From NCBI GenBank assembly GCA_016212965.1, contig JACRDA010000123.1, positions 1 through 41,298 of the forward strand: a stretch of DNA of 41,298 nt. Direction: 5' to 3'. Made by a program: the position numbers and the translations under genes. This DNA comes from Myxococcales bacterium. GTDB taxonomy: Bacteria > Myxococcota_A > Polyangia > Polyangiales > Polyangiaceae. Of this stretch, positions 4,126-25,355 are shown piece by piece. The notes under the pieces are model-generated. The model did no database searches. It saw only the letters and a program-made list of their open reading frames with translations, and was not told the origin of the DNA. Each line of letters begins with the position of its first letter. Positions within the stretch are counted from its first letter, which is position 1.

Positions 4126-5633
4126 CCGCCCTTCGGCCCCTTGATGCCGTAGCGCGACATCAGCCGCTGCAGGTGGCGGCGGTCGACCCCCGCGTCGCGC
4201 GCGGCGTGAGAGACGTTGCCCTCGCAGCGCTCGAGCGCGGCCGACACGTAGGCGCGCTCGAAGCGCTCGACCCAGGCCTCCTTCGCCTCGTGGTAGGGCA
4301 GCGTCAGCAGGGCCTCGTCGGCGCTGGCGCGGTGCTCGCCCGTGGACGAGCGCACCGTGGGCTCGCCCGGGCCGACGCTCGTGCCGAGCACGTTCCAGCG
4401 CTCGACGAGGTTGCGGAGCTCGCGCACGTTGCCCGGGAAATCGTAGCGCTTGAGCATCGCGAGCGCGTTCGGATCGAGCGGGGCGAGCGGCGGCAGGCCC
4501 GAGGCGGCGCGCCTCCGCCCGAGCTCCTCCTGGATGTGCGCGACGAGCAGCGGCAGATCCTGCATGCGCGTGCGGAGCGGCGGGATCTTCACGACCACGA
4601 CCGCCAGCCGGTAGTAGAGATCCTGCCGGAACGTGCCGGCCTCCACCTCGCGCGCAAGCGAACGGTTGGTCGCGGCCACGACGCGCACGTCGACCGTGCG
4701 GCTCCGGTCGGAGCCCACGGGCTTGACCTCGTGGCGCTCGAGCACGCGCAGGGCCTTGGCCTGCATGTCGATGGGCAGCTCGCCCACCTCGTCGAGGAAG
4801 AGCGTCCCCCCGTCGGCCGCGACGAAGGCGCCCGGCCGGTCGCGGACGGCGCCGGTGAACGCGCCGGCGACGTGGCCCATGAGCTCGCTCTCGATGAGCT
4901 CGCGCGGGATGGCGCCGCAGTTCAGGGTGACGAAGGGCCCACTGCGGCCGCTCGCCTCGTGCAGGCCCTCGGCGGCGAGCTCCTTGCCCGTGCCGGTCTC
5001 GCCCTCGACGAGCACGGTGAGCTCGCTCTGCGCCACCTTCTCGAGCACGGCGAACATCTCGCGCATCGGCGGGCTCTCGCCGAGCATGCGGCCGAAGCGC
5101 GACGTGTGGCTGATCTCGTGCTCGACGTGCTCGGCGAGCGGCTCGAGACGCAGCACCGTGTCGCCGAGCCGCAGCGTGAGCGCGTCCGAGACGACCACCT
5201 GTCGCAGGCGCATCGTCCCGACGAAGGTGCCGTTCTTCGAGCCGCGGTCGGTGACGACGAAGCCCTCTTCCGACAGGCGCACCGCCAGGTGGTCGCGCGA
5301 CACCTTGGGGTCGGTGAGCACGACGTCCATGGCGGGGCTCGAGCCGACGCGCACCTCGTCCTGCGCGAACGAGTAGCTCTTCGTCTCGGCCTTGGGATCG
5401 GGCTGGGACACGAGCGTGACGCGGAGCTTGCGGATGCGCCGCACTTCACCGCTCGGCATGCTGAGCTCGGTCACGCGCCGGAGCGAGGGCGCGCCCGCGA
5501 CGGGCGGGTCGTGCGGGGACGAGCCGGCGGGCGGCGCCGGCAGGACGAGGACCTCGCCCGGCGGGCGCGGCACGATCGTCGGAGCCGCGTCCTTCTCGGT
5601 CGCGTCGGTGGGCGCTCTAGGCTTGATGCTCAT
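4122..5633 (-). CDS. FHA-domain sigma-54-dependent transcriptional activator
   Basis: 503 residues, ATG at 5633. An N-terminal Pro-rich segment (1-55) leads to an FHA domain at about 90-165 (RVGSSP, SRDHL, DRGSKNGTFVG), which binds phosphothreonine peptides. The AAA+ sigma-54 interaction domain follows: Walker A GETGTGKE at 211-218, GAFTGA at 257-262 (the loop that contacts sigma-54), GGTLFLDEVGELP (Walker B), and PGNVRELRNL. A Fis-type helix-turn-helix ends the protein (NVSHAARDAGVDRRHLQRL). All key motifs look intact, so it should remodel sigma-54 RNA polymerase at target promoters. It lies 31 bases downstream of a same-strand Ser/Thr kinase gene, so the likely input is threonine phosphorylation read by the FHA domain. 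Targets are unknown. Confidence 0.9.
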   Translation of the reverse strand: MSIKPRAPTDATEKDAAPTIVPRPPGEVLVLPAPPAGSSPHDPPVAGAPSLRRVTELSMPSGEVRRIRKLRVTLVSQPDPKAETKSYSFAQDEVRVGSSPAMDVVLTDPKVSRDHLAVRLSEEGFVVTDRGSKNGTFVGTMRLRQVVVSDALTLRLGDTVLRLEPLAEHVEHEISHTSRFGRMLGESPPMREMFAVLEKVAQSELTVLVEGETGTGKELAAEGLHEASGRSGPFVTLNCGAIPRELIESELMGHVAGAFTGAVRDRPGAFVAADGGTLFLDEVGELPIDMQAKALRVLERHEVKPVGSDRSRTVDVRVVAATNRSLAREVEAGTFRQDLYYRLAVVVVKIPPLRTRMQDLPLLVAHIQEELGRRRAASGLPPLAPLDPNALAMLKRYDFPGNVRELRNLVERWNVLGTSVGPGEPTVRSSTGEHRASADEALLTLPYHEAKEAWVERFERAYVSAALERCEGNVSHAARDAGVDRRHLQRLMSRYGIKGPKGG

Positions 5634-5664
5634 GCGGGGAGCGGGGGCACACCGAGCCGGCGCA

Positions 5665-7179
<1,515 letters not shown>

Positions 7180-14558: not shown

Positions 14559-15275
14559 TCAGGCGCCGCGCAGCTCGAGCTCCACCAGGCACTCCTTGCC
14601 CGCCTGCGGCACCTTGTAGGAGAACGAGCGGCCCACGAAGGCGCCGACGAGGCCGGCCCAGTACTCGTGGAACAGCTTGCACAGCACCGCGTCGCCCACC
14701 TTCTCGCCCTTGTCCTCCACCACCTTGCAGAGCGCGCACGGGTGGAAGCGCAGCGCCACCCGGGGGCCCTCCACCCGGTGGTCGAAGGTGAACGAGTGCG
14801 CGAAGTCGCGCTGCATGCGCGCGAGCACCGCCTCGAGCGAGTCCTCGCCGTGGATCTCGGGCAGGTGGGTCGCCGCGAGCGTCCCCGCGCGCCGACCGAT
14901 CGAGGCGAAGCCCGTCCCGAAGACGTCCATGACCGCAGCCGCGAGGGCGTGAAGGCGCCCCGCCACGTCGAGCTCGGCCTCGGCGCAGGCGGCCGGACCG
15001 AGCGTGCTCGCGGCGGTCGCTGCCCCGAGGAGCTTCTCGGCGAGAGCGGCGTGCTTCTCGATGCGGTGAAAGGGGCGCAACACCTCGATGTCGGTCACGC
15101 TCACGGCCTGCGAGGGGCACACGTAGAAGCAGGACAGGCAGCCGATGCAGTCCTCCGGGCGCACGACCGCCGCCTTGTGCACCTCCTCTTGCGCCTCGAA
15201 GACGCTCACGGGGCACAGGTCTACGCACATGGTGCAGCCGCGACAGCCGCGCTCTTCGATCTTCACCTGGGCCAT
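14559..15275 (-). CDS. 2x[4Fe-4S] ferredoxin fused to a hydrogenase-cluster V4R-like domain
   Basis: 238 residues, ATG at 15275, the last gene of the cluster. Two cluster-binding motifs are intact: CRGCTMCVDLCP (Cys 11, 14, 17, 21) and CIGCLSCFYVCP (Cys 43, 46, 49, 53). Residues about 70-238 are not ferredoxin. They align by eye with the stand-alone 165-residue protein encoded at 17662-18159: VFGTGFASIGRRAG matches LLGSGAPSITFRAG, VALRFHPC matches LQLVFRHC, AVLCKLFHEYWAG matches LSLCHMNHGLFCG, and both end G-x-x-C before a short strand. The gene starts 4 bases after the hydrogenase large subunit, so it is very probably the redox partner of the hydrogenase. The role of the C-terminal domain is unknown; a ligand or cluster site is possible given its conserved Cys. 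Confidence 0.8.
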   Translation of the reverse strand: MAQVKIEERGCRGCTMCVDLCPVSVFEAQEEVHKAAVVRPEDCIGCLSCFYVCPSQAVSVTDIEVLRPFHRIEKHAALAEKLLGAATAASTLGPAACAEAELDVAGRLHALAAAVMDVFGTGFASIGRRAGTLAATHLPEIHGEDSLEAVLARMQRDFAHSFTFDHRVEGPRVALRFHPCALCKVVEDKGEKVGDAVLCKLFHEYWAGLVGAFVGRSFSYKVPQAGKECLVELELRGA

Positions 15276-15279
15276 GCCA

Positions 15280-16683
15280 TCACCTCCGCGCTCGCCGCAC
15301 TTCGCTGCCGCCTCGACGCACGACGACCTCGAGCCTCATCTCCCCGACGCGGTGCGTGGCGCAGGACAGGCACGGGTCGTAGCAGCGGACACCGAACTCG
15401 ATGCCGTTCAAGAGCACCCCGTCGGGCTGGTCGATGAGCCGCTCGACCGACAGGCCGATGGTCCGGTCGATCGCTGCCAGGTTCTGCTGCGTCGCCACGA
15501 GCAGGTTGCAGCGGGTCACGATGCCGTTCGCGTCGACCTCGTAGTCGTGGATGAGCGTGCCGCGCGGCGCCTCGACGTGGGCCGTGGCGCTGCGGGGTGT
15601 GCCGAGGCTGGTGGTGCGCACGTCGTCGGAGCGGATCTCGTCGTCGGCGACGATCTCGGCGAGCCGCTCCGAGGCGTAGAGCAGCTCGACGAGCCGTGCA
15701 TAGTGGTAGAGCACGGTCTCGTGACAGGGCAGCCCGCCGAGCTCGCGGAAGGCCTCGAGCTCGGCGCTCGCGAGCGGCGTGTCGATGCGGTCGCACACGT
15801 TGAGCCGGGCGAGCGCTCCGACCCGGTAGCTCTGGCCTTCGCCCGTGGCGTTGCAGAGCACCCGCTTCGCGTACCCGCCCGGCGCGACCTCCTCGTAGAT
15901 GTGCGCGGCCCAGTCGTCCTCCGACATGTCCACCGTGCGCGCGCCGTCCGCAGAGCGGAAGCGAAGCGCGCCGGCGTAGAGGTCGAGCGCCCCGCCGGCG
16001 CCGACGGTGCCGAGGTAGTTGGTCTCGAGCGGCAGGAGCGACAAGAGCTCGCGCCTGCCGAGCAGCGCAGCGCGCGCGAAGTCGACCAGCTCCCGCGCCA
16101 GCGGCGAGCACTCCGCGGCGATGCGCCGCAGACCGTCGAGGCGCGGCGCGCCGAGGGGCGCCGCCAGTCCGCCGGCGACGCACGAGACCGGATGGGTGCT
16201 GCGACCGCCGATGAGCTCCGTCGCCCTGGCGCCGAGGGTGCGCAAGCGCAGCGCCTTCTTGGCGACCTCGGGCGCCGCCGAGAGCAGGCCCACGATGCTG
16301 CGCTGCGAGGCGTCGGCGTCGAGGCCGAGGATGAGGTCCGGACCCGCGAGCGCGAAGAAGTGGATCGCGTGCGAGTGGATGATGCCGGCCAGCCCGAGCG
16401 CCTGTCGCAGCAGCGTCGCGGCGCGCGGTGGCGTGACGCCGAACACCTTGTCCACGGTGCGCGCCGAGGCCAGGTGGTGCGTCTGCGGACAGGTGCCGCA
16501 GATCCGCGGCGTGATGGTCGGCATCATCTCGACCTGCATGCCGCAGAGGAAGGTCTCGAACCCGCGGAAGTCGAGCACCCTGAACATCGAGGTCACGACC
16601 TTGCCGGCGTCGTCGAGCTCGATCTCGACCCGGGCGTGACCCTCGATGCGCGTGAGCGGGTCGATGGTGATGGTACGACTCAT
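15280..16683 (-). CDS. [NiFe]-hydrogenase large subunit
   Basis: 467 residues, ATG at 16683. It binds the Ni-Fe site that splits or forms H2. The N-terminal motif RICGTCPQTHH supplies Cys62 and Cys65; the C-terminal motif DPCLSCATH supplies Cys438 and Cys441 with His444. The 23 residues after His444 (RVGEMRLEVVVRRGG and on) are the expected extension removed by a maturation protease, and a candidate protease is encoded in the same operon. The opening ITIDPLTRIEGHARVEI is typical. Together with its small subunit it looks like group 3 (cytoplasmic, Mvh/Hox-like): the small subunit lacks a Tat signal and no membrane anchor is encoded here. Subgroup assignment needs a tree. All ligands look intact. 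Confidence 0.93.
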   Translation of the reverse strand: MSRTITIDPLTRIEGHARVEIELDDAGKVVTSMFRVLDFRGFETFLCGMQVEMMPTITPRICGTCPQTHHLASARTVDKVFGVTPPRAATLLRQALGLAGIIHSHAIHFFALAGPDLILGLDADASQRSIVGLLSAAPEVAKKALRLRTLGARATELIGGRSTHPVSCVAGGLAAPLGAPRLDGLRRIAAECSPLARELVDFARAALLGRRELLSLLPLETNYLGTVGAGGALDLYAGALRFRSADGARTVDMSEDDWAAHIYEEVAPGGYAKRVLCNATGEGQSYRVGALARLNVCDRIDTPLASAELEAFRELGGLPCHETVLYHYARLVELLYASERLAEIVADDEIRSDDVRTTSLGTPRSATAHVEAPRGTLIHDYEVDANGIVTRCNLLVATQQNLAAIDRTIGLSVERLIDQPDGVLLNGIEFGVRCYDPCLSCATHRVGEMRLEVVVRRGGSEVRRARR

Positions 16684-16705
16684 GGGCGGAGCTCCTCGCG
16701 CGCTG

Positions 16706-17650
16706 TCAGGACTTCTTCGCGGCAGGGGCCGGGGCTCGGTCGCCGCGCACCCACTTGCGCAACAGGAAGGTCGGCTTCTGCCGGAACACCGGCGACGCCA
16801 TGGCGTAGGCGAAGTGCGTCTTGGCCTGCGCCTCGATCTCGTGCATCACGTCGGCGCGCTCGATCTTGGTGAGGTGCGCCATGCGCTCCGCCACCTCGCT
16901 CCGCACATCCTTTTGCGGCTCCTGCATGATGCTCTCGGAGGGCCCGCCACAGGAGAAGCAGGGGACGCCGACCTTCATGCACGGTGCCAGGCAGCGGTCG
17001 AGCGTCACCGAGCCGAAGCACAGGCAGCCCTGGGACAGGAAGCACTGCGTCGGGTCGTAGCTCCGCTCGTGGGCGCGCCGCACCTGCGTGACGTCGGTCT
17101 TCACCATGGTCCTGTCGCAGTTGAAGCACACGTTGTGCCGCCCGAACGCGGGAGATCGCTGCTCGAGCAGCGCCGACAGCCCGTCGAAGATGAAGGCGGG
17201 ATGCGGCGGGCAGCCCGGCAGGTAAAGGTCGACCGCGATCTCCGCGTCCAGTGGCACGTTGGCCTCGAGCAGCGGCGGGACGCCCGTCGGAGCGTCGGTG
17301 GTGCGGGTCGTCGGGTTCCGGCAGAAGGAGCCGTCGATGAGCTCGGCCTTCGTGTGGGCGTAGCCCGCGCTCTGCGGACCGCCATAAACGGGGCAGGTCC
17401 CGAACGCCATGATCGCCTGGCAGGAGGCGCGCATCTTCCGGGCCGCGGAGATGTCGTGCTCGCTGCGAATCGACCCCGTGATGATGCCGATGTCGGCCTC
17501 GGGGTAGTTCTTCTCGTCCATGAGAATGGGCAAGCGGACGATGTCGAGGCCCGCGAGCACCGCGAGCAGCTTCTCGTGCAGATCGACGATGCCGAGCTCG
17601 CAGCCCGAGCACCCCGACAACCACTCGATGCTGACCCTGGCCTTGGTCAT
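16706..17650 (-). CDS. [NiFe]-hydrogenase small subunit (group 3, MvhG-like)
   Basis: 314 residues, ATG at 17650. The proximal [4Fe-4S] cluster ligands are Cys14 and Cys17 (LSGCSGCELG), Cys86 (GTCPVYGG) and Cys147 (PGCPPHPAF). The C-terminal third has many more Cys (175, 178, 203, 209, 211, 220, 224, 231, 234; for example QGCLCFGSVTLDRC and VPCFSCGGPSES), enough for two further clusters. There is no Tat signal peptide, so the enzyme is cytoplasmic. The opening VSIEWLSGCSGCELGIVDLH, the full length near 310 and the QG-x-C-x-G-x-V-T pattern match the small subunits of Mvh-type and related group 3 enzymes rather than the shorter HoxY. It lies 22 bases upstream of the large subunit. Electrons probably pass to the ferredoxin encoded downstream. 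Confidence 0.9.
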   Translation of the reverse strand: MTKARVSIEWLSGCSGCELGIVDLHEKLLAVLAGLDIVRLPILMDEKNYPEADIGIITGSIRSEHDISAARKMRASCQAIMAFGTCPVYGGPQSAGYAHTKAELIDGSFCRNPTTRTTDAPTGVPPLLEANVPLDAEIAVDLYLPGCPPHPAFIFDGLSALLEQRSPAFGRHNVCFNCDRTMVKTDVTQVRRAHERSYDPTQCFLSQGCLCFGSVTLDRCLAPCMKVGVPCFSCGGPSESIMQEPQKDVRSEVAERMAHLTKIERADVMHEIEAQAKTHFAYAMASPVFRQKPTFLLRKWVRGDRAPAPAAKKS

Positions 17651-17661
17651 GGCGTTCCTCC

Positions 17662-18159
17662 TCAGGCCTTCTGTTCGAGCGTGAGCGTCTTGATGCAGGC
17701 GTTCTCGCCCGCGTGGTCGATGTCGAGGCGGCAGCGCTGGCCGCAGATCTTCTCGAGCAGCCCGCAGAACAGGCCGTGGTTCATGTGGCACAGGCTGAGC
17801 CGCTGCGGGTGTCCGTAGCGAAAGAGCGCCGAGCGCACCATGCAATGCCGGAAGACCAGCTGCAGCCGGAGCTCGCCGGCCTGGTTGGTGGTCCAGTGGG
17901 CCGCGGCGGCGTGCTTCTTGTACGGCTCGAACGCCCAGCGGATGCCGAGCTTCGCCATCTCGTTCCAGACGAGCGGCAGCGCCTTGTCGACGTCGCGCTC
18001 GGGCGGGGCGTCGCGGGCCGCTTTGAGGCCCGCGCTGCGGCCGGCGCGGAACGTGATGCTCGGCGCCCCCGACCCGAGCAAGTTCTCGAGTCCGTTCGCG
18101 GCGGACGCGAGGAAGATCATCAGCCCTTGCACGCGCTCCAGCTCTACGTTCTCGGCCAC
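17662..18159 (-). CDS. Cys-rich V4R-like protein of the hydrogenase cluster, unknown function
   Basis: 165 residues from GTG 18159, chosen because GGGAGG lies five to six bases upstream and longer starts would run into the protease gene. It has no signal peptide or transmembrane helix. The C-terminal half holds six Cys (106, 124, 132, 139, 143, 155) in a pattern like V4R (4-vinyl reductase-type) small-molecule-binding domains: long helices, then a G-x-x-x-C turn before a last strand (HAGENACIKTLTL). The same fold appears fused to the ferredoxin at 14559-15275. It sits 11 bases before the hydrogenase small subunit. Possible roles are an assembly factor, a redox or metal adaptor, or a sensor of ligand state; none is proven. 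The V4R relationship is my inference from pattern. Confidence 0.65.
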   Translation of the reverse strand: MAENVELERVQGLMIFLASAANGLENLLGSGAPSITFRAGRSAGLKAARDAPPERDVDKALPLVWNEMAKLGIRWAFEPYKKHAAAAHWTTNQAGELRLQLVFRHCMVRSALFRYGHPQRLSLCHMNHGLFCGLLEKICGQRCRLDIDHAGENACIKTLTLEQKA

Positions 18160-18217
18160 GGCAACCTCCCGGGGTCCTGACGCGGGCCGGCGCCCGCAAG
18201 ATGCGCGCAGAGCGCGG

Positions 18218-18766
18218 TCACGGCGGCCCCGCCGCGCCGGCGCGCGCCAGAGGGAGCGCGCGGACCTCGCGCTCCACGATCGCTGCGACCTCGGCGCAGG
18301 CGCGCGCCTCGGTCGCGTCGTCGATGCCCTCGGTCTCGACCAGCACGAGCAGGGTGCGCTCGGGCAGGAGCTCGGGGCACACGTGACGCGCCACGTACAG
18401 CGCCTCGAGCGGGCCGATCTGGTGCACGCTCGTGCTCGGCGGCGGCGGGACCGCAATGTCGGGCACGAGCTCGCGCACCGTGCCAGGCGCGCCCCCGAAG
18501 AGGCAGGCGTCGACGACGACGAGCAGCGCCTGCCGGTGCAGGTGGTCGAGGAGCGCGAGGCCGCTCGTGCCGAGCTCGCACAGCTCGACATCCGGGCCGA
18601 AGCGCCCCGCCAGCAACCCGAGCGCCTGCGGACCCACACGGTCGTGGGCGAGGACCGAATGGCCGGCGCCGACCACGGTCACGGCCGCCAGCGACGCCAC
18701 GGCATCGGCGGCGCTGCCGTCCGTGCGTGGCGGCGTCGCGGGCAGCTCGGCTGGAATGGGGCGCAT
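18218..18766 (-). CDS. hydrogenase maturation protease (HyaD/HycI family)
   Basis: 182 residues, ATG at 18766. These endopeptidases sense nickel and cut the C-terminal extension of the hydrogenase large subunit. Nickel-ligand positions can be matched: Asp42 (in HDRVG, where family members have D/E-x-x-G), Asp86 (VVVDACLFGGAPGTV) and His115 (SVHQIGPLEAL). The normally conserved GxGN near the start reads GAGH (33-36), and the first Asp of the usual DD pair is His41. A 25-residue Ala/Pro-rich head precedes the fold. Its neighbour 58 bases downstream is the V4R-like gene, and the substrate is presumably the large subunit made from the same operon. Family call is good; the motif changes are notable. 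Confidence 0.8.
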   Translation of the reverse strand: MRPIPAELPATPPRTDGSAADAVASLAAVTVVGAGHSVLAHDRVGPQALGLLAGRFGPDVELCELGTSGLALLDHLHRQALLVVVDACLFGGAPGTVRELVPDIAVPPPPSTSVHQIGPLEALYVARHVCPELLPERTLLVLVETEGIDDATEARACAEVAAIVEREVRALPLARAGAAGPP

Positions 18767-18787
18767 CGCGTGGTGACTCCCTCTGGC

Positions 18788-19792
18788 TCAGCCGGTGTGC
18801 AGCCGCTCCAGTCGTCGCAGGTTGAGCTCGAGGGCACGGTTGCCCGGGTCGAGCGCGAGCGCGCGCTGCCAGATCGCACGCGCCGCGTCGTAGTCGCGGC
18901 GGCGCAGGGCCTCGAAGCCGCGGTCGACGAGCTCCGCGACCTCGGTGGCGCTGCCGCCCGAAGCGTCGCCGGTGGGGCTCTCGAGCTCGGGGCCGGCGCT
19001 GCCGGCGTCGTCGCGCGGTGCGATGACCGAGCGCGGGACCGCGACGCGGGCGATCTCGCCCGCGAGCGCGCTCGCGTCCGGCAGCCACGAGACGCGCGTG
19101 ACGCCGGCGTACGCCTCGTCGTGGAGCCGCGCGCCCTCGAGCAAGAGGTGCTGCCAGGGCGCGTGCACGCTCCGCGGTCCGTCCTTGGGCAGCGGCAGCG
19201 TGTCGAAGCGACCGTGCTTGGACGCCAGGATGCGGTAGACGGCGGCCTCGCCCGTGCGCCCGTCGCAGCGCGCGTGCACGATCTCGCCGCGCTCGATGTG
19301 GAGGACGCCCATCATGGGGCCGTCGACCACCCGCACGGCGGTGCTGCGCTGCGTGAGACACAACATCTGGATGACGTCCGAGGGCGCCATGGTGTCGAGC
19401 GTGCCGGTGAGGCTGTCGCGCCGCTCGAGGGTCTCGACGACGAGCTCGTGCATCGCGTCGAGCTCGAAGGGCTTCGCCACGATCTCGAGGCAGCCGTGGC
19501 GAAAGGCCGTATCGCGGACCTCGTCGAGGTCGTACCCGGTCATCACGATGACGCGCGTGCCAGGCGACTCGTCCGCGGCCCAGCGCAAGAGCTCGATGCC
19601 GCTCCTGCCGGGGAGGCGGACGTCCGTGACCATCACGTCGACGTCGTTCTCCATGAGGATGCGCTGGGCGATCTCGGCGCTCGCGGCGACGAGCACGTCG
19701 TAGCGCTCGTTGTCCTGGTACAGGGTCCGCCACAGGGCGACCACGGTGGCCTGGTCGTCGTCGACGATGAGCACCCGGCGGCGCGTGCGCAT
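18788..19792 (-). CDS. response regulator with DUF4388 and TPR output
   Basis: 334 residues, ATG at 19792. The receiver domain (1-120) is complete: Asp11/Asp12, phosphorylated Asp57 (VMVTDVRLPG), Thr85 (VIVMTGYD) and Lys107 (VAKPFEL). Residues about 128-235 are a DUF4388 (PatA-like) domain (LTGTLDTMAPSDVIQML; MGVLHIERGEIVHARCDG; GEAAVYRIL), found in many myxobacterial and cyanobacterial signalling proteins. A low-complexity linker leads to one or two TPR motifs at about 285-330 (GFEALRRRDYDAARAIWQRA). It has no DNA-binding domain, so output is by protein contact. No histidine kinase is encoded nearby, so its phosphodonor is elsewhere. Its start overlaps the previous gene's stop by one base (TGATG). 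Confidence 0.87.
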   Translation of the reverse strand: MRTRRRVLIVDDDQATVVALWRTLYQDNERYDVLVAASAEIAQRILMENDVDVMVTDVRLPGRSGIELLRWAADESPGTRVIVMTGYDLDEVRDTAFRHGCLEIVAKPFELDAMHELVVETLERRDSLTGTLDTMAPSDVIQMLCLTQRSTAVRVVDGPMMGVLHIERGEIVHARCDGRTGEAAVYRILASKHGRFDTLPLPKDGPRSVHAPWQHLLLEGARLHDEAYAGVTRVSWLPDASALAGEIARVAVPRSVIAPRDDAGSAGPELESPTGDASGGSATEVAELVDRGFEALRRRDYDAARAIWQRALALDPGNRALELNLRRLERLHTG

Positions 19793-20268
19793 CAGAGCTC
19801 CTCCCCGGCGGCAAAGTGCACGAGGTCGTCGGTCGCGCCCGCGCGCAGGCGTGCGAGCGAGGCGTCGACGCGAGGGTCGTCCGCCCCGAGTGCCTCGAGC
19901 GCCTCGAGCACGAGCAGCGCCGTGCCGGACTCGCCCGCGGCGTACGCCTCGACCGCCTTCACGAACAGCAGCGCCACCGCGCTCGGACCCGCGCCCGGTG
20001 CGCGCCGCGAGCCGAGCGACGTCATCGTCTGGCGCACGCTCTCTTCGAGCCTGCCGTGCTGTGTCGCGACGAGCTCGTCGAGATCGCCCGCGGCGGCCTC
20101 GCCCTCGAGCGGGAGATCGATGCGCCGGATCACCCGACCCCGGTAGACCGCGATCGAGCGCACGCGCGCGGGGTCGGCGCAGAGCTCCGTCTGGAGGCTG
20201 ATCCCGCCGCCCCCGATGTCGAGCAGCGAGGTCTTCCCCGGGCCCCGGTCGCGGCGCGCGCGCATCAT
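19792..20268 (-). CDS. conserved-looking protein with TPR-like C-terminus, unknown function
   Basis: 158 residues; two ATG codons lie in tandem at 20268 and 20265. The first overlaps the previous gene's TGA (ATGA), so it is the likely start. Residues about 22-75 form a strand-rich unit, ISLQTELCADPARVRSIAV then YRGRVIRRIDLPLEG, followed by a helix with AATQHGRLEESVRQ-like spacing. I have the impression that this QTE...G-x-V module also occurs in other deltaproteobacterial signalling proteins, but I cannot name it. The C-terminus (AVEAYAAGESGTALLVLEAL; DDPRVDASLARLRAGA) is TPR-like, echoing its two DUF4388 neighbours. It probably acts as a protein-interaction partner within the cluster. No enzymatic motif is visible. 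Confidence 0.65.
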   Translation of the reverse strand: MMRARRDRGPGKTSLLDIGGGGISLQTELCADPARVRSIAVYRGRVIRRIDLPLEGEAAAGDLDELVATQHGRLEESVRQTMTSLGSRRAPGAGPSAVALLFVKAVEAYAAGESGTALLVLEALEALGADDPRVDASLARLRAGATDDLVHFAAGEEL

Positions 20269-20597
20269 GTCGCCGCCTCCGCCTCGCCGCAGCACTCCGC
20301 CAGCAGCCGCGCGAGGGCGCGCGCGCGCGCCGCTCGCGCCTCGGGTGCCACGAGGTAGCTCACGCGAATCTCCACGCGCGCCGTGCGCGGGACCACGACG
20401 AGCACGTCCTCGTCCGGCCCCACCATCGAGCGCACGAGCAGGCCGGCGGTCGACTCCGCGAAGCCGCGCCGCGCGAGCGCCTCGAGGACGGCCGGCACGT
20501 GCGCCACGACCGGCAGATCGCAGCGCCACAGGAGATCGCGCACGCAGCGCGCCTCGCGGCTGAGTGCGAGGGGAGGCGTCCCGGCGATGGGGTCCAC
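20265..20597 (-). CDS. 110-residue protein of the hydrogenase cluster, unknown function
   Basis: Starts at GTG 20597, six bases after GGAG; the preceding gene's TGA is at 20608, so the spacing is tight. Its own stop overlaps the next gene's ATG (ATGA). The sequence looks globular alpha/beta: helices REARCVRDLLWRCDLPVVAHV and AVLEALARRGFAESTAGLLV, a strand-rich middle DEDVLVVVPRTARVEIRVSYLV, and a long C-terminal helix with CC. It has no signal, transmembrane helix or catalytic motif. I do not recognise it. The precise translational coupling on both sides argues that it is a real gene acting with its neighbours. Confidence 0.6.
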   Translation of the reverse strand: MDPIAGTPPLALSREARCVRDLLWRCDLPVVAHVPAVLEALARRGFAESTAGLLVRSMVGPDEDVLVVVPRTARVEIRVSYLVAPEARAARARALARLLAECCGEAEAAT

Positions 20598-20607
20598 GAC
20601 TTGCTCC

Positions 20608-21870
20608 TCACACGGGGGTGACCTTGACCTCGCAGTGGGCGTCGCCCTTCGCCACGCAGCTCGTCTCCTCGACCTTCCAGGGGACGCCGGCGGCGAAGAG
20701 CTTCCGGTAGAACTCCTGCGTGAGCCCGGGGCGATCCTTCCAGGGCACGCGGTGCGCGAGCTGCATGATGGCGAGCGCCGCGCCCTGGAAGAAATAGCAG
20801 CGCGGTCGGTCCGAGCGCTCCTCGCGCGCGCGCCAGTACGGCCCCTCGTAGGTGCACGGCGCGCGCAGGACGAGCTCGCGCCCGGGCTCGAGGCGTACGA
20901 CGGACCAGGCACCGAAGCCGAGCGCGCGGGCGATCGCACAGCAGCCGACGACCACCTCCGCGACGCCGCCCTCGAGCGTGCCCACCATCCCTTCCCACTC
21001 GGGCGAGAGCAGGATGCCGCCGAAGGTGTTGAACACGCACACGTGCCCCGACTCGCGCAGCAGAGCCTCCATCACGGCCGCCCCGGCCTGGGACTGGTGC
21101 TCGACGTGCTTCAGGCCCTCGTAAGAGATGCGGTTGTAGTAGGTCGCGGCGTGGAGCGTCACGAACACGCCGAAGGCCTGGACCAGCCCGCGCGCGTCAC
21201 CGGCGACCCCGGCCGTGACCTGCCGCAGCCCGTCGGCGATCGTCGCCACCCGGGCCTCGTCGAGGCCGGCGAAGCCCGAGCCCGCGGCCGCGAGGCTCTC
21301 GGCCTTGCCCACGTGCGGGCGCGGCGCCTCGGGCGGCTGGCCGGGAACGAGCTTGAACTCGCAGCGGGGTGCGCGCAGCGCCACGCACGCCGACTCGGTG
21401 GCGGCGACACTGCGGGGCGGCAGGCCCAGCGCCAGCTCGGCGGCCGCCGCCGCGTAGCCCGCGGCCACGGCGTCCGCCGGGCGCCGGCGCCGCACCGCGT
21501 CGCCGTACTTGTCGAGCCACGTGAATCCGTAGTGCAGGTGCTCGCCCGTGGCGCCGCCCCCGCCGCGCTCCATCGCGATGTCGAGCTTGCCGTGCCCCGC
21601 GGCCGCGAACAGCGCGCGGGCGAGCTCGAGCCGCTCCGGAGGCGTGGTGAGGTCGGCGCGCGCCGAGAGCCGCGTGAGCAGCTCGCCGAAGGCCTCGCGC
21701 GCCGCCGCCGTGCGCAAGGCGTTGCCCGCGTCACCACCGAGCGCGTCATCGATGGTCTGGTCGAGGAACAGGTTGAAGTGGTGGCAGTGATAGAGCACCG
21801 GGCAGTCGGCGATGAAGGCCAGGGATTGCTCCGCGAGGAGCTCACGTTGGGAGGCGATCTTGTCGAGCAT
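20608..21870 (-). CDS. tandem V4R-like (small-molecule-binding) protein
   Basis: 420 residues, ATG at 21870 with GAGG six bases upstream. Two halves can be recognised. The first (about 1-195) contains CPVLYHCHHFNLFLDQTID, a helical stretch, HYGFTWLDKYG and the ending ESACVALRAPRCEFKLV. The second (about 240-420) contains an equivalent start (HAATYYNRISYEGL), GVAEVVVGCCAIARALGFG, CYFFQGAALAIM and the ending ETSCVAKGDAHCEVKV. Each half ends in C-x6-8-C followed by a strand, the hallmark of V4R/4-vinyl-reductase-type domains that bind hydrocarbons, tetrapyrroles or metals. There is no effector domain, so it may sense a ligand and pass the signal by contact. It lies 16 bases after the Roadblock-like gene. 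Domain call is by motif, not by search. Confidence 0.6.
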   Translation of the reverse strand: MLDKIASQRELLAEQSLAFIADCPVLYHCHHFNLFLDQTIDDALGGDAGNALRTAAAREAFGELLTRLSARADLTTPPERLELARALFAAAGHGKLDIAMERGGGGATGEHLHYGFTWLDKYGDAVRRRRPADAVAAGYAAAAAELALGLPPRSVAATESACVALRAPRCEFKLVPGQPPEAPRPHVGKAESLAAAGSGFAGLDEARVATIADGLRQVTAGVAGDARGLVQAFGVFVTLHAATYYNRISYEGLKHVEHQSQAGAAVMEALLRESGHVCVFNTFGGILLSPEWEGMVGTLEGGVAEVVVGCCAIARALGFGAWSVVRLEPGRELVLRAPCTYEGPYWRAREERSDRPRCYFFQGAALAIMQLAHRVPWKDRPGLTQEFYRKLFAAGVPWKVEETSCVAKGDAHCEVKVTPV

Positions 21871-21886
21871 GGTTACCTCGCCGGGT

Positions 21887-22468
21887 TCACAGATGCAGCT
21901 CGTCGATCCCGAGGATGTCGGCGATGGACCGCTCGACGGCCGCGAGCTGCTCGGCGGCGAGCGCCTCGGGGCGCGCGAGAGTCTCGAGCGGGACGCCCGT
22001 CTGGAGCGACACGCGCAGCAGCGAGGCGTGCGGATCGGGCGCGTAGCGCTGCAGGAACTCGAGCACGCGCACGGCGCGCGGGCGCTCCTGCACCTGGAAC
22101 GCGGGCAGCTGCGCCTGCAGGCGATCGGTCATGCGCTTGATGTGGAGCCGGACCATGCCGAGCGGCGTCTCGCGCGAGAACACGAAGCCCGCGACGAAGT
22201 CGCCCTCCAGCTCGCGCAGAATGATGAGCACGTCGGCCGACTCGATCGTGACCTGCATGAGCGCCGACCACGAGCCGAGCGCCTTCAGGCCCTCGCGGTT
22301 CGCGCGGATGAGGTCGCCGAAGTAGGCCGCGACGTCCTCGGGGTGCCACGTCTCTCCTTCCCGGACCCACGATCCGAACAGCAGGCAGTCGGGCATGGCG
22401 GTGATGAACAGGCCCCTCAGCTGTGGGACGTCGGCAACCGTGCTAGCTACGTCGATGCGGGCCATCAT
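21887..22468 (-). CDS. Roadblock/LC7-like protein with C-terminal extension
   Basis: 193 residues; tandem ATG codons at 22468 and 22465, the first overlapping the upstream TGA (ATGA), with AGAGG just upstream. Residues 1-110 are compatible with a Roadblock/LC7 fold: PQLRGLFITAMPDCLLFGSW in the position of the first helix and strand, WSALMQVTIESADVLIILREL in the central strands, and GDFVAGFVFSRETPLGMVRL toward the last helix. The C-terminal 70 residues are an extra helical region (AVRVLEFLQRYAPDPHASLL; AALAAEQLAAVERSIADIL). Such proteins typically act as regulators or platforms for small GTPases or ATPases. It is coupled to another Roadblock gene and close to a ParA-like ATPase gene. Fold assignment is tentative. 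Confidence 0.55.
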   Translation of the reverse strand: MMARIDVASTVADVPQLRGLFITAMPDCLLFGSWVREGETWHPEDVAAYFGDLIRANREGLKALGSWSALMQVTIESADVLIILRELEGDFVAGFVFSRETPLGMVRLHIKRMTDRLQAQLPAFQVQERPRAVRVLEFLQRYAPDPHASLLRVSLQTGVPLETLARPEALAAEQLAAVERSIADILGIDELHL

Positions 22469-23112
22469 GTACCTCTCTCGTTGGTGACGCACACGGCGTG
22501 CAGGGTGGCGCGGATGGTGGCCGCGGCGCTGCGCGCGAGCGATTCGGTCATGACGACGCCGAGGGCGAGGCGTCCCGAGGGCGTCGAGACCCACAGCACC
22601 TCGAGCAGGCTGGCGCCGTCGAGCTCGATGACCACCGCGAGCTGCGGCTCACCCGCGAGCAACCTGCGGACCGGGAACATGGCCCCGTCGAGCGCGGCGC
22701 TCACGGCGACGTGCTCCTCGGCGACGTGGCGCGACACGAGCGGCAGGCCGTCCTCGTCCGCCACGAAGGCCGCCGAGGCGCCCGTCGCCGCCAGCAGCCA
22801 GTCGACGAAGGTCTCGAGCCGCTCGAACAGCGGGGCGCTGCCGTCGACCGCGGCCGGCGCGAGCAGGTGGCGCGGCGCCGGCCCCGTAGCCGCGCTGCGC
22901 GCAGTGCCGGGCACCCGGTGCAGTGGGGGCGGCGCCTCGGTCCCGCGCGCCCGGGGCGCGGGCGGCGCCTCGCGCGACGACCCCTGCTCGGGGAAATGCA
23001 CGCGCTCGGGATCGCGCGCGCGCGGCTCGTCCGCGCGCTTCGACTCGACCCCGGCGCGGCGCAGGAGGTCGGTGAGTGCGGTGCGATCAATCGACCAGGG
23101 CGACTGGGCCAT
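22465..23112 (-). CDS. Roadblock/LC7 domain protein with disordered N-terminal region
   Basis: 215 residues, ATG at 23112, overlapping the end of the ParA-like gene by 26 bases. The first 90 residues start with a short amphipathic segment (WSIDRTALTDLLRRAGV) and continue as Pro/Ala/Arg-rich, probably unstructured, linker. A Roadblock/LC7 domain covers about 95-213: LFERLETFVDWLLAATGA (helix 1), SAAFVADEDGLPLVSRH (strand 1 with the typical D-x-x-G-L turn), PQLAVVIELDGASLLEVLWV (central strands), GRLALGVVMTESLARSAAAT (final strand and helix). The N-terminal motif could bind the ParA-like ATPase, as short N-terminal tags do for other ParA partners; that is inference from overlap and layout. Confidence 0.7.
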   Translation of the reverse strand: MAQSPWSIDRTALTDLLRRAGVESKRADEPRARDPERVHFPEQGSSREAPPAPRARGTEAPPPLHRVPGTARSAATGPAPRHLLAPAAVDGSAPLFERLETFVDWLLAATGASAAFVADEDGLPLVSRHVAEEHVAVSAALDGAMFPVRRLLAGEPQLAVVIELDGASLLEVLWVSTPSGRLALGVVMTESLARSAAATIRATLHAVCVTNERGT

Positions 23113-23893
23113 CGTCCGGCTCCTTTTCCGTGAGCCGCATGCGTTGCTCGAGCTCCGCGGCGAGCTTGTCGAAGACCATGGCGACGGGCGGCGGCCTGCG
23201 GCTCAGCAGGCCCACCGGCACACCGGCGCTCGAAGCCGCCAGGAACGCGGGATCGCGCGGCACGGCCGGCTCGAGCACCAGCTCCTCGGGGAATCCCCCC
23301 CAGACGGTCTCGGCGGCCTCGAGCGAGTCCTTCTCGCGCAGCTGCAGCATCGTGAGCAAGAGGCCGACCGGCTCCACGGCCACCTCGTTGTCGCGCAACC
23401 ACGCGAGCACCTCGAAGACCTGGGTCACGCTGCGGGACGCCAGCGGCTCGGCCTGCACGGGACAGAGCACGTGGGTGGCGGCGCGGAGGGCGCCCACGGT
23501 CGCGCCGCCGAAGCCGCTCGGCGTGTCGAAGATGACCAGGTGGTAGGCGGCCGCCGCCTCCTCGACCAGGCGCCCGAGGGCAGCGCCGTCGGCGAGCGCG
23601 GCGTGGAAGCCGGGGGTGTCCTGGATGGCGATGTGCCCGATGGGCAGAATCGCCAGGTTCTCGAGCCTCGTCGCGATGACCACCTCACCGAGAGGGCGCC
23701 GGTGCGCGACGTACTCGGCGAGGCCGCGCGCGTCGGCCACGCGGCGCGTGAGCGACAGACCGACGGCGCCCTGCGGATCCGTGTCGACGAGCAGGGTGCT
23801 CCAGCCGCGGCGCGCGAAGGCAAGTGACAGGTTGAGCGCGACGGTGGTCTTGCCGCACCCTCCCTTGGGGCTGACGATGGCTAGGACGGTCAT
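23087..23893 (-). CDS. ParA/MinD-family ATPase
   Basis: 268 residues, ATG at 23893. Deviant Walker A PKGGCGKTTVALNLS (9-23) with the signature lysine; TLLVDTDPQGAVG is the A' motif; LVIFDTPSGFGG is Walker B. These dimer-forming ATPases position plasmids, chromosomes or protein clusters by binding DNA or membrane. No ParB gene or parS-like repeat is present. There is no amphipathic MinD-type C-terminal helix, and the end is acidic (EKEPDDGPVALVD). Its ATG overlaps the DUF4388 gene stop (ATGA) and its 3' end overlaps the Roadblock gene by 26 bases, so stoichiometric production is likely. Here it may position the cluster's own proteins rather than DNA. Confidence 0.88.
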   Translation of the reverse strand: MTVLAIVSPKGGCGKTTVALNLSLAFARRGWSTLLVDTDPQGAVGLSLTRRVADARGLAEYVAHRRPLGEVVIATRLENLAILPIGHIAIQDTPGFHAALADGAALGRLVEEAAAAYHLVIFDTPSGFGGATVGALRAATHVLCPVQAEPLASRSVTQVFEVLAWLRDNEVAVEPVGLLLTMLQLREKDSLEAAETVWGGFPEELVLEPAVPRDPAFLAASSAGVPVGLLSRRPPPVAMVFDKLAAELEQRMRLTEKEPDDGPVALVD

Positions 23894-24831
23894 TTCGTGC
23901 CTATCCGTTGGCGAAGCCGTTGAATGTTGTGACGGACATTGGGGTCATCCGGGCGCAGGGCCGCGCACCGCTCGAAGCCCTGCAGCGCCGCTTCGTAGTC
24001 GCGCCGCACGTAGGCGAGCGTCGCCTCCTGGAACAGTGCCTCGAAGGGGTCGCCGGCGCTGCCCGAGGTCGCGGCGCGCGGTGCCGGCTCGTTCGAGGGG
24101 GCGCCCAAGCTGCGGGTCGTTTCCGGGACCTCGGCGTCGAGCGGCGGGCGCGCCGTCTCGGGCAGGCCGGGCAGGCGCTCGCGCGGCGCGGGTGTTGGCG
24201 ACCCGGACGGCGGCGTCATGCGCGGCTCGGCCGCGCGCACGGGGACCGCGACGGGAACGCCGAGGGGCGTGTGACGCCGCTGCCGAGCCGGGCTGCGCGG
24301 CGCGGCGGCGGCTGCGGGTGCCTCCCCGAAATCCGGTGGCGGCGCGGTGTCCGCATCGCTCGGCGCGGGGCGCCGCGGCGTCGGCGTGGTGATGCCCGTG
24401 CGGCGCGCCGTCGGCGCCGGCAGGGGCGTCGGGTCGGAGACCCCGGCACGCGGGGCCGAGACCGTCGAGGCGGCGGGCCCCGCCGCGACGATGCTCGCCT
24501 GGCCGGACGCGAAGGCGGCCTCGAGCGCACGTCGCTGTTCCGGGGACGGCGCCACCGGCGGGAAGTGGCTGCGCCAGGGCCGCGACAGCGAGGGCGGCGC
24601 CAGGCGGTCGGCGTCGAGGAACACGAGGCGCACGTCGGCACGTGGCAGACGGGCGAGGAGCGCGAGCGCCTGATCGCCCTGCGCGCCAGGCATCTCGGCG
24701 TGCACCACCTCGCCGCGCCGGACATCCACGTGCCCGATGGCGAGCACGCCGAGCGACAGCTCGAGCCGCACGGTGAGCTTCCGCTCCTCGGCGTGGGCGA
24801 GGAGCTCGGCGCAAGTCAGCTGGGTGTCCAT
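23890..24831 (-). CDS. DUF4388-like protein with Pro-rich linker and TPR tail
   Basis: 313 residues, ATG at 24831. Residues 1-75 look like a shortened DUF4388 (PatA-like) unit (LTVRLELSLGVLAIGHVDV; RRGEVVHAEMPGAQGDQAL). Residues about 100-250 are a long Ala/Pro/Thr/Arg-rich linker. The end (about 262-310) is a TPR motif pair: ALFQEATLAYVRRDYEAAL and LRPDDPNVRHNIQRLRQR. This tail resembles that of the response regulator at 18788-19792 (VRRDYEAALQGFERCAALRPD against LRRRDYDAARAIWQRALALD), so the two may dock on a shared partner. It ends on ATGA with the ParA-like gene. A scaffold or adaptor role is inferred; no enzymatic motif. Confidence 0.7.
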   Translation of the reverse strand: MDTQLTCAELLAHAEERKLTVRLELSLGVLAIGHVDVRRGEVVHAEMPGAQGDQALALLARLPRADVRLVFLDADRLAPPSLSRPWRSHFPPVAPSPEQRRALEAAFASGQASIVAAGPAASTVSAPRAGVSDPTPLPAPTARRTGITTPTPRRPAPSDADTAPPPDFGEAPAAAAAPRSPARQRRHTPLGVPVAVPVRAAEPRMTPPSGSPTPAPRERLPGLPETARPPLDAEVPETTRSLGAPSNEPAPRAATSGSAGDPFEALFQEATLAYVRRDYEAALQGFERCAALRPDDPNVRHNIQRLRQRIGTK

Positions 24832-24986
24832 GCTCTGCGGGTGGGGCGCGGGCTGGAGGCGCCCGCGATGGCGAGATTCTGTCGGCGGTGGCTCGGTTCG
24901 ACGCGCTGCGGTGCACCGCCTGCGGGCTCAGCGCCCGGGGACCGCGCCGGACGGCCCGGGCAGGGCCTTCCGGTGGCGCGCTACGG

Positions 24987-25355
24987 TCACAGCGCCTGCA
25001 CGAGCTCCGCGACGCGGCGCTTGATGTCGAGGAAGACGAGCCCGAGCTTCGCCTCCGCGGTCGTCAGGACGATGAGGATCGACTCGGCCCCGACGGCGTT
25101 CAGGATCACGTAGCCCTTCTCGCTGCGCACGTAGGTCTGATCGGGCGCCGCACCCATCAGCTCGCTCGAGATGCGCTGGCTCACGCCGAGCATCGCGGCG
25201 GCCATGGCCGAGACCACTTCCTCGTCGATCTGGCTCGGCAGCAGCGAGGCGATGATGAACCCCTCGGTGCTCACCACGGCAGAGCCGATGATGTCCGGCG
25301 ACGCCGTGCGCAGGCTGCGCAGGACTTCCTGGATCTTCTCGGTGCGTGTTGCCAT
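24987..25355 (-). CDS. Roadblock/LC7 domain protein (MglB-like fold)
   Basis: 122 residues, ATG at 25355, with GGAGGA 11 or more bases upstream. It is nearly all Roadblock/LC7: TEKIQEVLRSLRTASPDIIG (helix 1), SAVVSTEGFIIASLL (strand with the S-x-x-G turn), EVVSAMAAAMLGVSQRISSEL (helix 2), YVRSEKGYVILNAVGAESIL (strands), LGLVFLDIKRRVAELVQAL (final helix). It resembles bacterial MglB-type or stand-alone Roadblock proteins that regulate Ras-like GTPases. No MglA-like GTPase is encoded in the window. It is the most upstream gene of the minus-strand cluster, 155 bases before the DUF4388 gene, and may share or precede the operon promoter. Confidence 0.85.
   Translation of the reverse strand: MATRTEKIQEVLRSLRTASPDIIGSAVVSTEGFIIASLLPSQIDEEVVSAMAAAMLGVSQRISSELMGAAPDQTYVRSEKGYVILNAVGAESILIVLTTAEAKLGLVFLDIKRRVAELVQAL

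What the first reader, a model, noticed from the sequence alone, without database searches (positions are those of the whole stretch)
14559..25355. [NiFe] hydrogenase embedded in a Roadblock/ParA/DUF4388 signalling module
Fourteen consecutive same-strand genes combine a complete [NiFe] hydrogenase core (small and large subunits, ferredoxin, protease) with three Roadblock/LC7-type proteins, a ParA/MinD ATPase, a phosphoreceiver-DUF4388-TPR protein, a second DUF4388-TPR protein, a tandem V4R-like protein and two unknowns. Genes overlap by ATGA or TGATG at most junctions of the regulatory half, so they are probably translated together. Known hydrogenase operons carry Hyp, diaphorase, Hdr or membrane subunits; I know of none with this set. 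Hypothesis: H2 oxidation or production is spatially or allosterically controlled by a polarity-type switch, or H2 is sensed and relayed to motility or development.
Basis: partly seen in the sequence, partly recalled or inferred. Interest (0 to 1): 0.92.

Follow-up and report, generated by a model that had tools for sequence, protein, structure and literature searches.

The report
Hydrogen sensor wired to polarity proteins
A hydrogen-splitting enzyme is encoded together with switch proteins related to those that position machines inside cells, a pairing that recurs in distant bacteria and in archaea, so these microbes likely use hydrogen as a signal and not only as food.

Summary
The 14 same-strand genes at 14559-25355 are real, but composite. 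A core of V4R-fold protein K, hydrogenase small and large subunits (L, M), ferredoxin N and a Roadblock protein recurs in Myxococcota and a few other bacteria, and as Fd-K-S-L-Roadblock-Roadblock in 25 of 30 archaeal loci read. A Roadblock gene lies in 41 of 47 such loci but in 1 of 35 loci of other [NiFe] hydrogenases from genomes that hold the module; a ParA/MinD gene in 26 of 47 against 0 of 35. No complete Hdr, Frh, Hox or Hyd electron-acceptor partner was found on their strand. K is predicted to have the PoxR/MopR sensor fold; one relative fuses the hydrogenase protease to a chemoreceptor signalling domain. Best reading (0.5): an H2-responsive signalling hydrogenase acting through V4R and Roadblock proteins on ParA/MinD, kinase or response-regulator outputs. 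Main rival: a ferredoxin-linked metabolic hydrogenase whose place or activity is regulated. Text searches found no description; every functional step is untested.

The parts
24987..25355 (-). A: Roadblock/LC7 protein, 122 aa
   Evidence: Pfam Robl_LC7 52.7 bits; 49-74% identical to Roadblocks of 8 other bacterial module loci aligned; 155 nt before B
23890..24831 (-). B: 313 aa, TPR-like C-terminus, second cassette
   Evidence: weak TPR only; matches a B-like protein before ParA in L149
23087..23893 (-). C: ParA-type ATPase, 268 aa
   Evidence: Pfam AAA_31 85.6 bits; 55% identical in hydrogenase-free L149, 42% in module locus L013
22465..23112 (-). D: 215 aa, possible Roadblock-like C-terminal half
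   Evidence: Pfam 13 bits, below cut-off; hhalign 38%
21887..22465 (-). E: 192 aa, predicted Roadblock/MglB fold plus helical tail
   Evidence: model pLDDT 87.6; best PDB match MglB, E 8.5e-7
20608..21870 (-). F: V4R-domain protein, 420 aa
   Evidence: Pfam V4R 41.9 bits, one stretch at 395-419
20265..20597 (-). G: 110 aa, unknown
   Evidence: no Pfam; homologues in L148 and L151
19792..20268 (-). H: 158 aa, unknown
   Evidence: no Pfam; homologues in L148 and L150
18788..19792 (-). I: receiver-DUF4388-TPR protein, 334 aa
   Evidence: Pfam receiver 75.8, DUF4388 61.3 bits; homologue upstream of K in L009, L010, L011, L021
18218..18766 (-). J: hydrogenase maturation protease
   Evidence: Pfam HycI 37.4 bits; TIGR00072 over cut-off
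17662..18159 (-). K: 165-aa protein of the V4R fold, module marker
   Evidence: model pLDDT 87.2; MopR/PoxR sensor domains best match, E 1.5e-5; no Pfam hit
16706..17650 (-). L: [NiFe] hydrogenase small subunit
   Evidence: Pfam Oxidored_q6 87.8 bits; best NCBIfam VhuG, 182 bits, cut-off 450
15280..16683 (-). M: [NiFe] hydrogenase large subunit, Ni-Fe motifs intact
   Evidence: Pfam 92.1 bits; best NCBIfam VhuA, 333 bits, cut-off 800; motifs and tail
14559..15275 (-). N: 2x[4Fe-4S] ferredoxin with K-related C-terminal domain
   Evidence: Pfam Fer4; hhalign with K 97.4%

Best explanation
The cluster likely encodes an H2-responsive signalling hydrogenase: a group-3-like [NiFe] enzyme whose redox state would be read by V4R-fold proteins and would be passed through Roadblock platforms to a ParA/MinD-type ATPase, a kinase or a response regulator. 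Shown: the gene sets, their recurrence in bacteria and archaea, the intact Ni-Fe motifs, the lack of classical electron-acceptor subunits in the loci read, and a relative in which the hydrogenase protease is fused to HAMP and chemoreceptor signalling domains. Inferred: H2 reduces the enzyme; electrons reach the clusters of N; the Cys-rich V4R-type domains of K and N change state; Roadblock A binds them and sets the output. In the window the output would be receiver-DUF4388 protein I and, through the joined second cassette B-H, the ParA ATPase; in archaea a MinD, in some lineages beside type IV pilus assembly genes. Expected effect: H2 changes where or whether a cell-surface or polarity machine works.
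For: Roadblock in 13 of 17 bacterial and 28 of 30 archaeal module loci, 1 of 35 control hydrogenase loci; ParA/MinD 2 of 17, 24 of 30, 0 of 35. Archaeal order Fd-K-S-L-Roadblock-Roadblock in 25 of 30; large subunit to Roadblock gap 60 nt or less in 24 of 25, MinD on the same strand within 3.3 kb in all 24 loci that have it. K has the fold of ligand-sensor domains and N carries a related domain. Receiver-DUF4388, Ser/Thr kinases and a HycI-HAMP-MCP fusion keep company with the module. No complete HdrA/MvhD, FrhB, Hox or HydBG match in the 46 loci tested, except HdrB-like genes on the opposite strand in three. The same kinase-Roadblock-OmpA-coiled coil-V4R set occurs with c-type cytochrome genes instead of a hydrogenase in L192 and L193.
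Against: No function is tested. The Ni-Fe motifs and a processed-type tail are kept, so the enzyme may simply turn over H2, and a ferredoxin lies in the operon as possible electron carrier. The Gln signature of known H2 sensors is absent and no histidine kinase is among the 14 genes. Genes B-H occur without hydrogenase. ParA lies by only 2 of 17 bacterial module loci. The Roadblock and ParA profiles were built partly from module loci, and loci within a clade are not independent. L030 and L084 hold the hydrogenase genes without a Roadblock match. The MCP fusion rests on one draft genome.
Confidence: 0.5

Rival explanations
1. A metabolic hydrogenase that exchanges electrons with ferredoxin N, while K, the Roadblock and ParA/MinD proteins place or gate the enzyme in the cell. 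In Methanomicrobiales it would be the Mvh-like source of electrons for heterodisulfide reductase.
For: Ni-Fe motifs intact; the dedicated ferredoxin is conserved; nearest solved relatives include MvhA; Anderson 2009 lists Memar_1007-1008 as F420-non-reducing hydrogenase (PMC2686161, passages), probably this enzyme (L076; identity partly recalled); how H2 electrons reach Hdr in Methanomicrobiales is an open question (PMC6019823, passages).
Against: No MvhD/HdrA beside it; the large subunits form clades apart from the Mvh references (reference labels from neighbours, partly checked); kinase, receiver and chemoreceptor company.
Confidence: 0.32
2. The signalling genes are accidental neighbours: a mobile Roadblock/ParA cassette landed beside a hydrogenase.
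For: B-H occur alone in G027 and G094 and partly in G250; Roadblock genes are common in Myxococcota.
Against: For A, K and the hydrogenase the same neighbours recur in two domains, with 41 of 47 against 1 of 35 in controls. It may hold for B-H alone.
Confidence: 0.1
3. K and the Roadblock protein are assembly factors for this hydrogenase, not signal carriers.
For: K is adjacent to the small subunit in all 30 archaeal loci (gap 16 nt or less) and in the bacterial loci read; a protease is nearby in several loci.
Against: K's best structural matches are ligand sensors; kinases, a receiver and a chemoreceptor domain accompany the module.
Confidence: 0.08

Closest known systems
Regulatory H2-sensing hydrogenase, group 2b (Ralstonia RH, HoxBC with a histidine kinase)
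   Same: [NiFe] heterodimer proposed to act as an H2 signal input
   Different: Group-3-like sequence, His kept where RH has Gln, tail and protease present, Roadblock/V4R/ParA partners and no histidine kinase among the 14 genes (PMC5665086 sections 4 and 28 read)
Mvh/Vhu hydrogenase, group 3c (MvhAGD-HdrABC)
   Same: Closest NCBIfam models VhuA and VhuG, though far below cut-off; MvhA among nearest solved relatives
   Different: No MvhD or HdrA; own clades in the tree
MglA/MglB polarity module (Roadblock as regulator of a Ras-like GTPase)
   Same: Roadblock proteins, E with the MglB fold
   Different: No Pfam GTPase match among the 14 genes; ParA ATPase and hydrogenase instead
Archaeal type IV pilus loci with Roadblock and FleN/MinD
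   Same: Roadblock and MinD beside T2SSE/T2SSF genes (PMC4858521, passages)
   Different: A hydrogenase is embedded, and the Roadblock pair stays where no pilus gene follows
V4R sensor domains (PoxR, MopR) and TRAPP Bet3
   Same: Predicted fold of K; Roadblock/longin plus Bet3 folds are also the core of eukaryotic TRAPP (PMC10933270, passages)
   Different: K matches no Pfam family; its ligand is unknown and its genomic partner is a hydrogenase

Membership tests
Regulatory H2-sensing hydrogenase (group 2b) | Gln in place of a conserved His near the active site | tested here: not met
   The His that closes motif RxCGxCxxxH is kept in M and in all 40 module sequences; that this is the RH position is recalled, the Gln itself is from PMC5665086 section 28
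Regulatory H2-sensing hydrogenase (group 2b) | Histidine kinase partner | tested here: not met
   No histidine kinase domain in Pfam scans of the 14 genes
Regulatory H2-sensing hydrogenase (group 2b) | No C-terminal extension or protease (recalled) | tested here: not met
   23-residue tail after DPCLSCATH and protease J
Regulatory H2-sensing hydrogenase (group 2b) | Slow turnover, Ni-C accumulation | not testable with these tools
   needs purified enzyme
Mvh/Vhu hydrogenase (group 3c) | MvhD and HdrA partner | tested here: not met
   No complete match in 46 module loci; the own-genome control L034 has FlpD/MvhD, 139 bits
Mvh/Vhu hydrogenase (group 3c) | Large subunit groups with Mvh | tested here: inconclusive
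   Separate clades, each 100/99, but relations between clades unresolved; VhuA 333 bits against cut-off 800
MglA/MglB polarity module | Roadblock protein of MglB fold | tested here: met
   A by Pfam, E by fold
MglA/MglB polarity module | Cognate Ras-like GTPase | tested here: not met
   No Pfam GTPase match among the 14 genes; one encoded elsewhere is not excluded
V4R superfamily (K) | V4R/Bet3 fold | tested here: met
   Predicted model, Foldseek E 1.5e-5 to MopR, Bet3 next
V4R superfamily (K) | Pfam V4R sequence match | tested here: not met
   No Pfam family for K
V4R superfamily (K) | Bound ligand or Zn | not testable with these tools
   Three Cys and one His are invariant in 25 sequences, which would allow metal binding

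The most novel reading that the evidence does not exclude
A new kind of H2 signal transduction, independent of histidine-kinase H2 sensors and shared by bacteria and archaea: a group-3-derived [NiFe] hydrogenase is the input head of a V4R-Roadblock relay that drives ParA/MinD, kinase or chemoreceptor outputs and so steers surface machines (pili, gliding, polarity) by H2. The relay takes other redox heads too (c-type cytochromes in L192 and L193), and its pairing of Bet3-fold and Roadblock proteins is a prokaryotic parallel to the TRAPP core.
Probability: 0.35. Interest if true: 0.93.

Novelty: new variant of a known kind. Interest (0 to 1): 0.82.

Why it matters
If true, microbes that live by H2, including archaea near the methanogens, carry a dedicated H2-signalling hydrogenase that has been read as a metabolic Mvh. 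It would make H2-guided attachment or movement directly testable, and would give a role to the unexplained pairing of Roadblock, V4R and ParA/MinD proteins.

Tried and rejected
Rejected: one hydrogenase-specific set of 14 genes, because genes of B-H occur in the same order in genomes without a PF00374 match. Caution on that: L149 ends inside F, L148 begins at E, G250's E is only 24% identical, and G179, which has K and the start of the small subunit, also shows no PF00374 match because its contig ends, so absence in drafts is not proof. Rejected: type IV pili as the general output; pilus ATPase genes follow in 10 of 30 archaeal loci with the module order, plus L084, and not in L071-L083. Rejected: ParA as a fixed bacterial partner (2 of 17). 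Not confirmed: DUF4388 in B. Archaeal 'u224' proteins are only suggestively DUF4388-like (hhalign 71.5); the N-terminus of the long archaeal Roadblock protein is not (2.3). Led nowhere: promoter/terminator scan, plasmid search with N (no match), tRNA scan (none), sequence search of solved structures with K (no useful match), paper searches for a description of the module.

An earlier count said 27 of 30 archaeal loci; recounted it is 25 of 30. My script labels 'HdrA_MvhD', 'HoxEF', 'HydB' and the like were given by eye; one search checked eight of those proteins with Pfam and showed that in L034 MvhD (FlpD) is a gene of its own beside the FAD/ferredoxin protein.
Full report
WHAT IS THERE. The window's minus strand carries fourteen open genes from 25355 down to 14559, called A to N here in transcription order. 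Pfam finds Roadblock/LC7 in A, a ParA-type ATPase (C), V4R in F, receiver + DUF4388 in I, a hydrogenase maturation protease (J), [NiFe] small and large subunits (L, M) and a two-cluster ferredoxin (N). B has a weak TPR, D a sub-threshold Roadblock match; E, G, H and K match no family convincingly. Junctions run from a 26-nt overlap to a 58-nt gap, except 155 nt between A and B.

THE UNKNOWNS. K, aligned with 24 relatives, gives a confident model (pLDDT 87.2, pTM 0.81). Its nearest solved folds are the phenol-sensing domains of MopR, PoxR and DmpR, then TRAPP Bet3: the V4R superfamily. Among the 120 homologues listed (of 411 found) one source names many 'predicted hydrocarbon binding protein'. 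Three Cys and one His are invariant in the 25 sequences. Profile comparison puts the C-terminal half of N in the same family (97.4); in L030 and L031 that half is a separate gene. E is predicted to have the MglB fold. G and H remain unknown.

THE CORE MODULE IN BACTERIA. A scan of genome contigs with M gave 17 loci. K, small subunit, large subunit and ferredoxin recur in records of Myxococcota, Chitinivibrionales, Thiomargarita and, cut, Magnetococcales. The Roadblock gene A follows the ferredoxin on the same strand in L008-L015, L021 and L029; in L007 it lies 4 kb upstream on the other strand; in L031 a Roadblock gene precedes K. The short Thiomargarita contig shows J-K-L-M-N and, on the other strand, a Roadblock match below cut-off (17.3 bits). 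A protease lies directly upstream of K in L005, L006 and L033. A profile of K finds 4 of 377 Myxococcota genomes: rare there.

ARCHAEA. The same profile finds 35 of 294 genomes of the phylum of L016, 30 of them strongly. I read 26 of these loci plus L016, L017, L018 and L020, that is 27 of the 35 genomes; 8 were not read. Twenty-five of 30 loci have the order ferredoxin - K - small - large - Roadblock - second protein with a C-terminal Roadblock. Exceptions: L018 (contig ends), L084 (pilus-type ATPase gene follows directly, no Roadblock match), L085-L087 (order K-S-Fd-L, Roadblock nearby). A MinD/ParA gene lies on the same strand within 3.3 kb of the large subunit in 24 of 30, upstream in some lineages, downstream in others. 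T2SSE/T2SSF genes (Pfam on L020; other loci by best BLAST match) follow in 10 loci with the module order. Roadblock and MinD genes are known companions of archaeal pili (PMC4858521, passages). In L071-L083 the Roadblock pair stays although no pilus gene follows, and MinD stays except in L073 and L075. So the pilus link is a lineage matter; the Roadblock link is general.

CONTROL. Profiles of Roadblock, K, ParA/MinD and receiver-DUF4388 were run on 17 bacterial and 30 archaeal module loci and on 35 loci of other [NiFe] hydrogenases, all from genomes that hold the module. Roadblock: 13 of 17, 28 of 30, 1 of 35 (an MglB-like gene near the Hox genes of the window's own genome). ParA/MinD: 2 of 17, 24 of 30, 0 of 35. 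Receiver-DUF4388: 6 of 17, 0 of 30, 0 of 35. Limits: the Roadblock and ParA profiles were built in part from module loci, which favours them; loci within a clade are not independent; stretches differ in length; K was the bait for many loci. Bacterial misses: L005 and L033 are cut by a contig end, L006 has the sub-threshold match, L030 has none. Gene A at 55% identity or more occurs in 3 of 266 phylum genomes: the window's, G061 (module) and G125.

SIGNALLING COMPANY. Receiver-DUF4388 protein I precedes K in L009, L010, L011 and L021. Ser/Thr kinases stand upstream in L007, L008, L013, L029 and L033. OmpA-type and coiled-coil proteins follow A in several loci. In L030 the protease is fused to HAMP and MCP signalling domains in one open frame (HycI 56.1, HAMP_2 121.7, MCPsignal 95.5 bits); this is one draft genome. 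In L192 (G125) and L193 (G085) the set kinase - Roadblock A - OmpA - coiled coil - V4R stands with tetraheme-type cytochrome genes (and a Tll0287-like one in L192), without hydrogenase genes in the stretch; I did not search those two genomes for hydrogenases elsewhere.

NO CLASSICAL PARTNER. Reference Hdr, MvhD, FrhB, Hox and HydBG proteins from control loci (identities given by eye, eight checked by Pfam) found no complete partner in 46 module loci, apart from HdrB-like genes in L082, L090 and L091, each on the strand opposite to the module. Short ferredoxin-type matches occur in L012, L031, L071, L082, L090 and L091. The other two group-3-like hydrogenases of the window's own genome do have partners: FlpD/MvhD with an FAD/ferredoxin protein (L034) and Hox diaphorase (L035).

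TREE AND ACTIVE SITE. In a tree of 61 large subunits the 15 bacterial and the 25 archaeal module sequences each form one group (100/99), apart from the Mvh, Frh and Hox references; whether the two are sisters is unresolved, so one origin of the module is not shown. The bacterial ParA and archaeal MinD are only 20-24% identical, so these partners may have been recruited apart. All 40 module sequences keep both Ni-Fe motifs and a C-terminal tail. The Gln of known regulatory hydrogenases (PMC5665086, sections 4 and 28 read) is absent.

THE SECOND CASSETTE. E has clear homologues (54-57%) in G027 and G094 (9 of 282 genomes in all, most of them weak). L149 (G027) reads TPR protein - ParA (55%) - D - E - F up to the contig end; L148 (G094) E - F - G - H, then a convergent gene; L151 (G250) a distant E - F - G; L150 (G221) B-like, E-like and H-like genes. 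G027, G094 and G250 have no PF00374 match, though drafts can miss genes: G179 has K and the start of the small subunit and also shows none. Thus B-H is a ParA-Roadblock-V4R cassette of its own, joined in the window to the hydrogenase module. L013 shows another ParA and D-like pair beside the hydrogenase.

READING. I take the module as an H2-responsive signalling hydrogenase, at about even odds. Shown: anatomy, recurrence, control. Inferred: electron path, change in the V4R domains, Roadblock relay, output. The main rival is a ferredoxin-linked metabolic enzyme. In Methanomicrobiales, how H2 electrons reach Hdr is open (PMC6019823 and PMC3087415, passages), and Anderson 2009 lists Memar_1007-1008 as F420-non-reducing hydrogenase (PMC2686161, passages), probably this enzyme (L076; genome identity partly recalled).

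NOVELTY. Searches that combine hydrogenase with Roadblock, MglB, V4R, DUF4388, MinD, Methanomicrobiales or pili and the Memar tags listed no paper that I recognised as describing this module; I saw listings, and passages of PMC2686161, PMC9012536, PMC11291895, PMC12727194, PMC2614490 and PMC2253512. The library is open-licence only. H2-sensing hydrogenases are a known kind, hence 'new variant'.

Noticed in passing
L192 5228-11548; L193 6559-12797: Kinase, Roadblock A (58% and 48%), OmpA, coiled-coil and V4R genes beside tetraheme-type cytochrome genes: the same relay with another redox head.
   Followed up: partly
L030 5079-7115: Hydrogenase maturation protease fused to HAMP and MCP signalling domains in one open frame.
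   Followed up: partly
L085, L086, L087: Archaeal variants with order K-S-Fd-L and large subunits of 390-405 aa that end at the second Ni-Fe motif with no tail, as recalled for H2 sensors.
   Followed up: no
L084 854-6332: Fd-K-S-L followed directly by T2SSE- and T2SSF-like genes with no Roadblock match between.
   Followed up: no
L032 9592-10749: A 385-aa protein with weak coiled-coil matches and a K-like region (26.5% identical).
   Followed up: no
L035 3314-4404: An MglB-like Roadblock gene and, by eye, an MglA-like GTPase about 4 kb from the Hox-type hydrogenase genes of the window's own genome, on the other strand.
   Followed up: no
window 4122-7179: By eye, an FHA-domain sigma-54-type activator next to a Ser/Thr kinase; not tested with profiles.
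   Followed up: no
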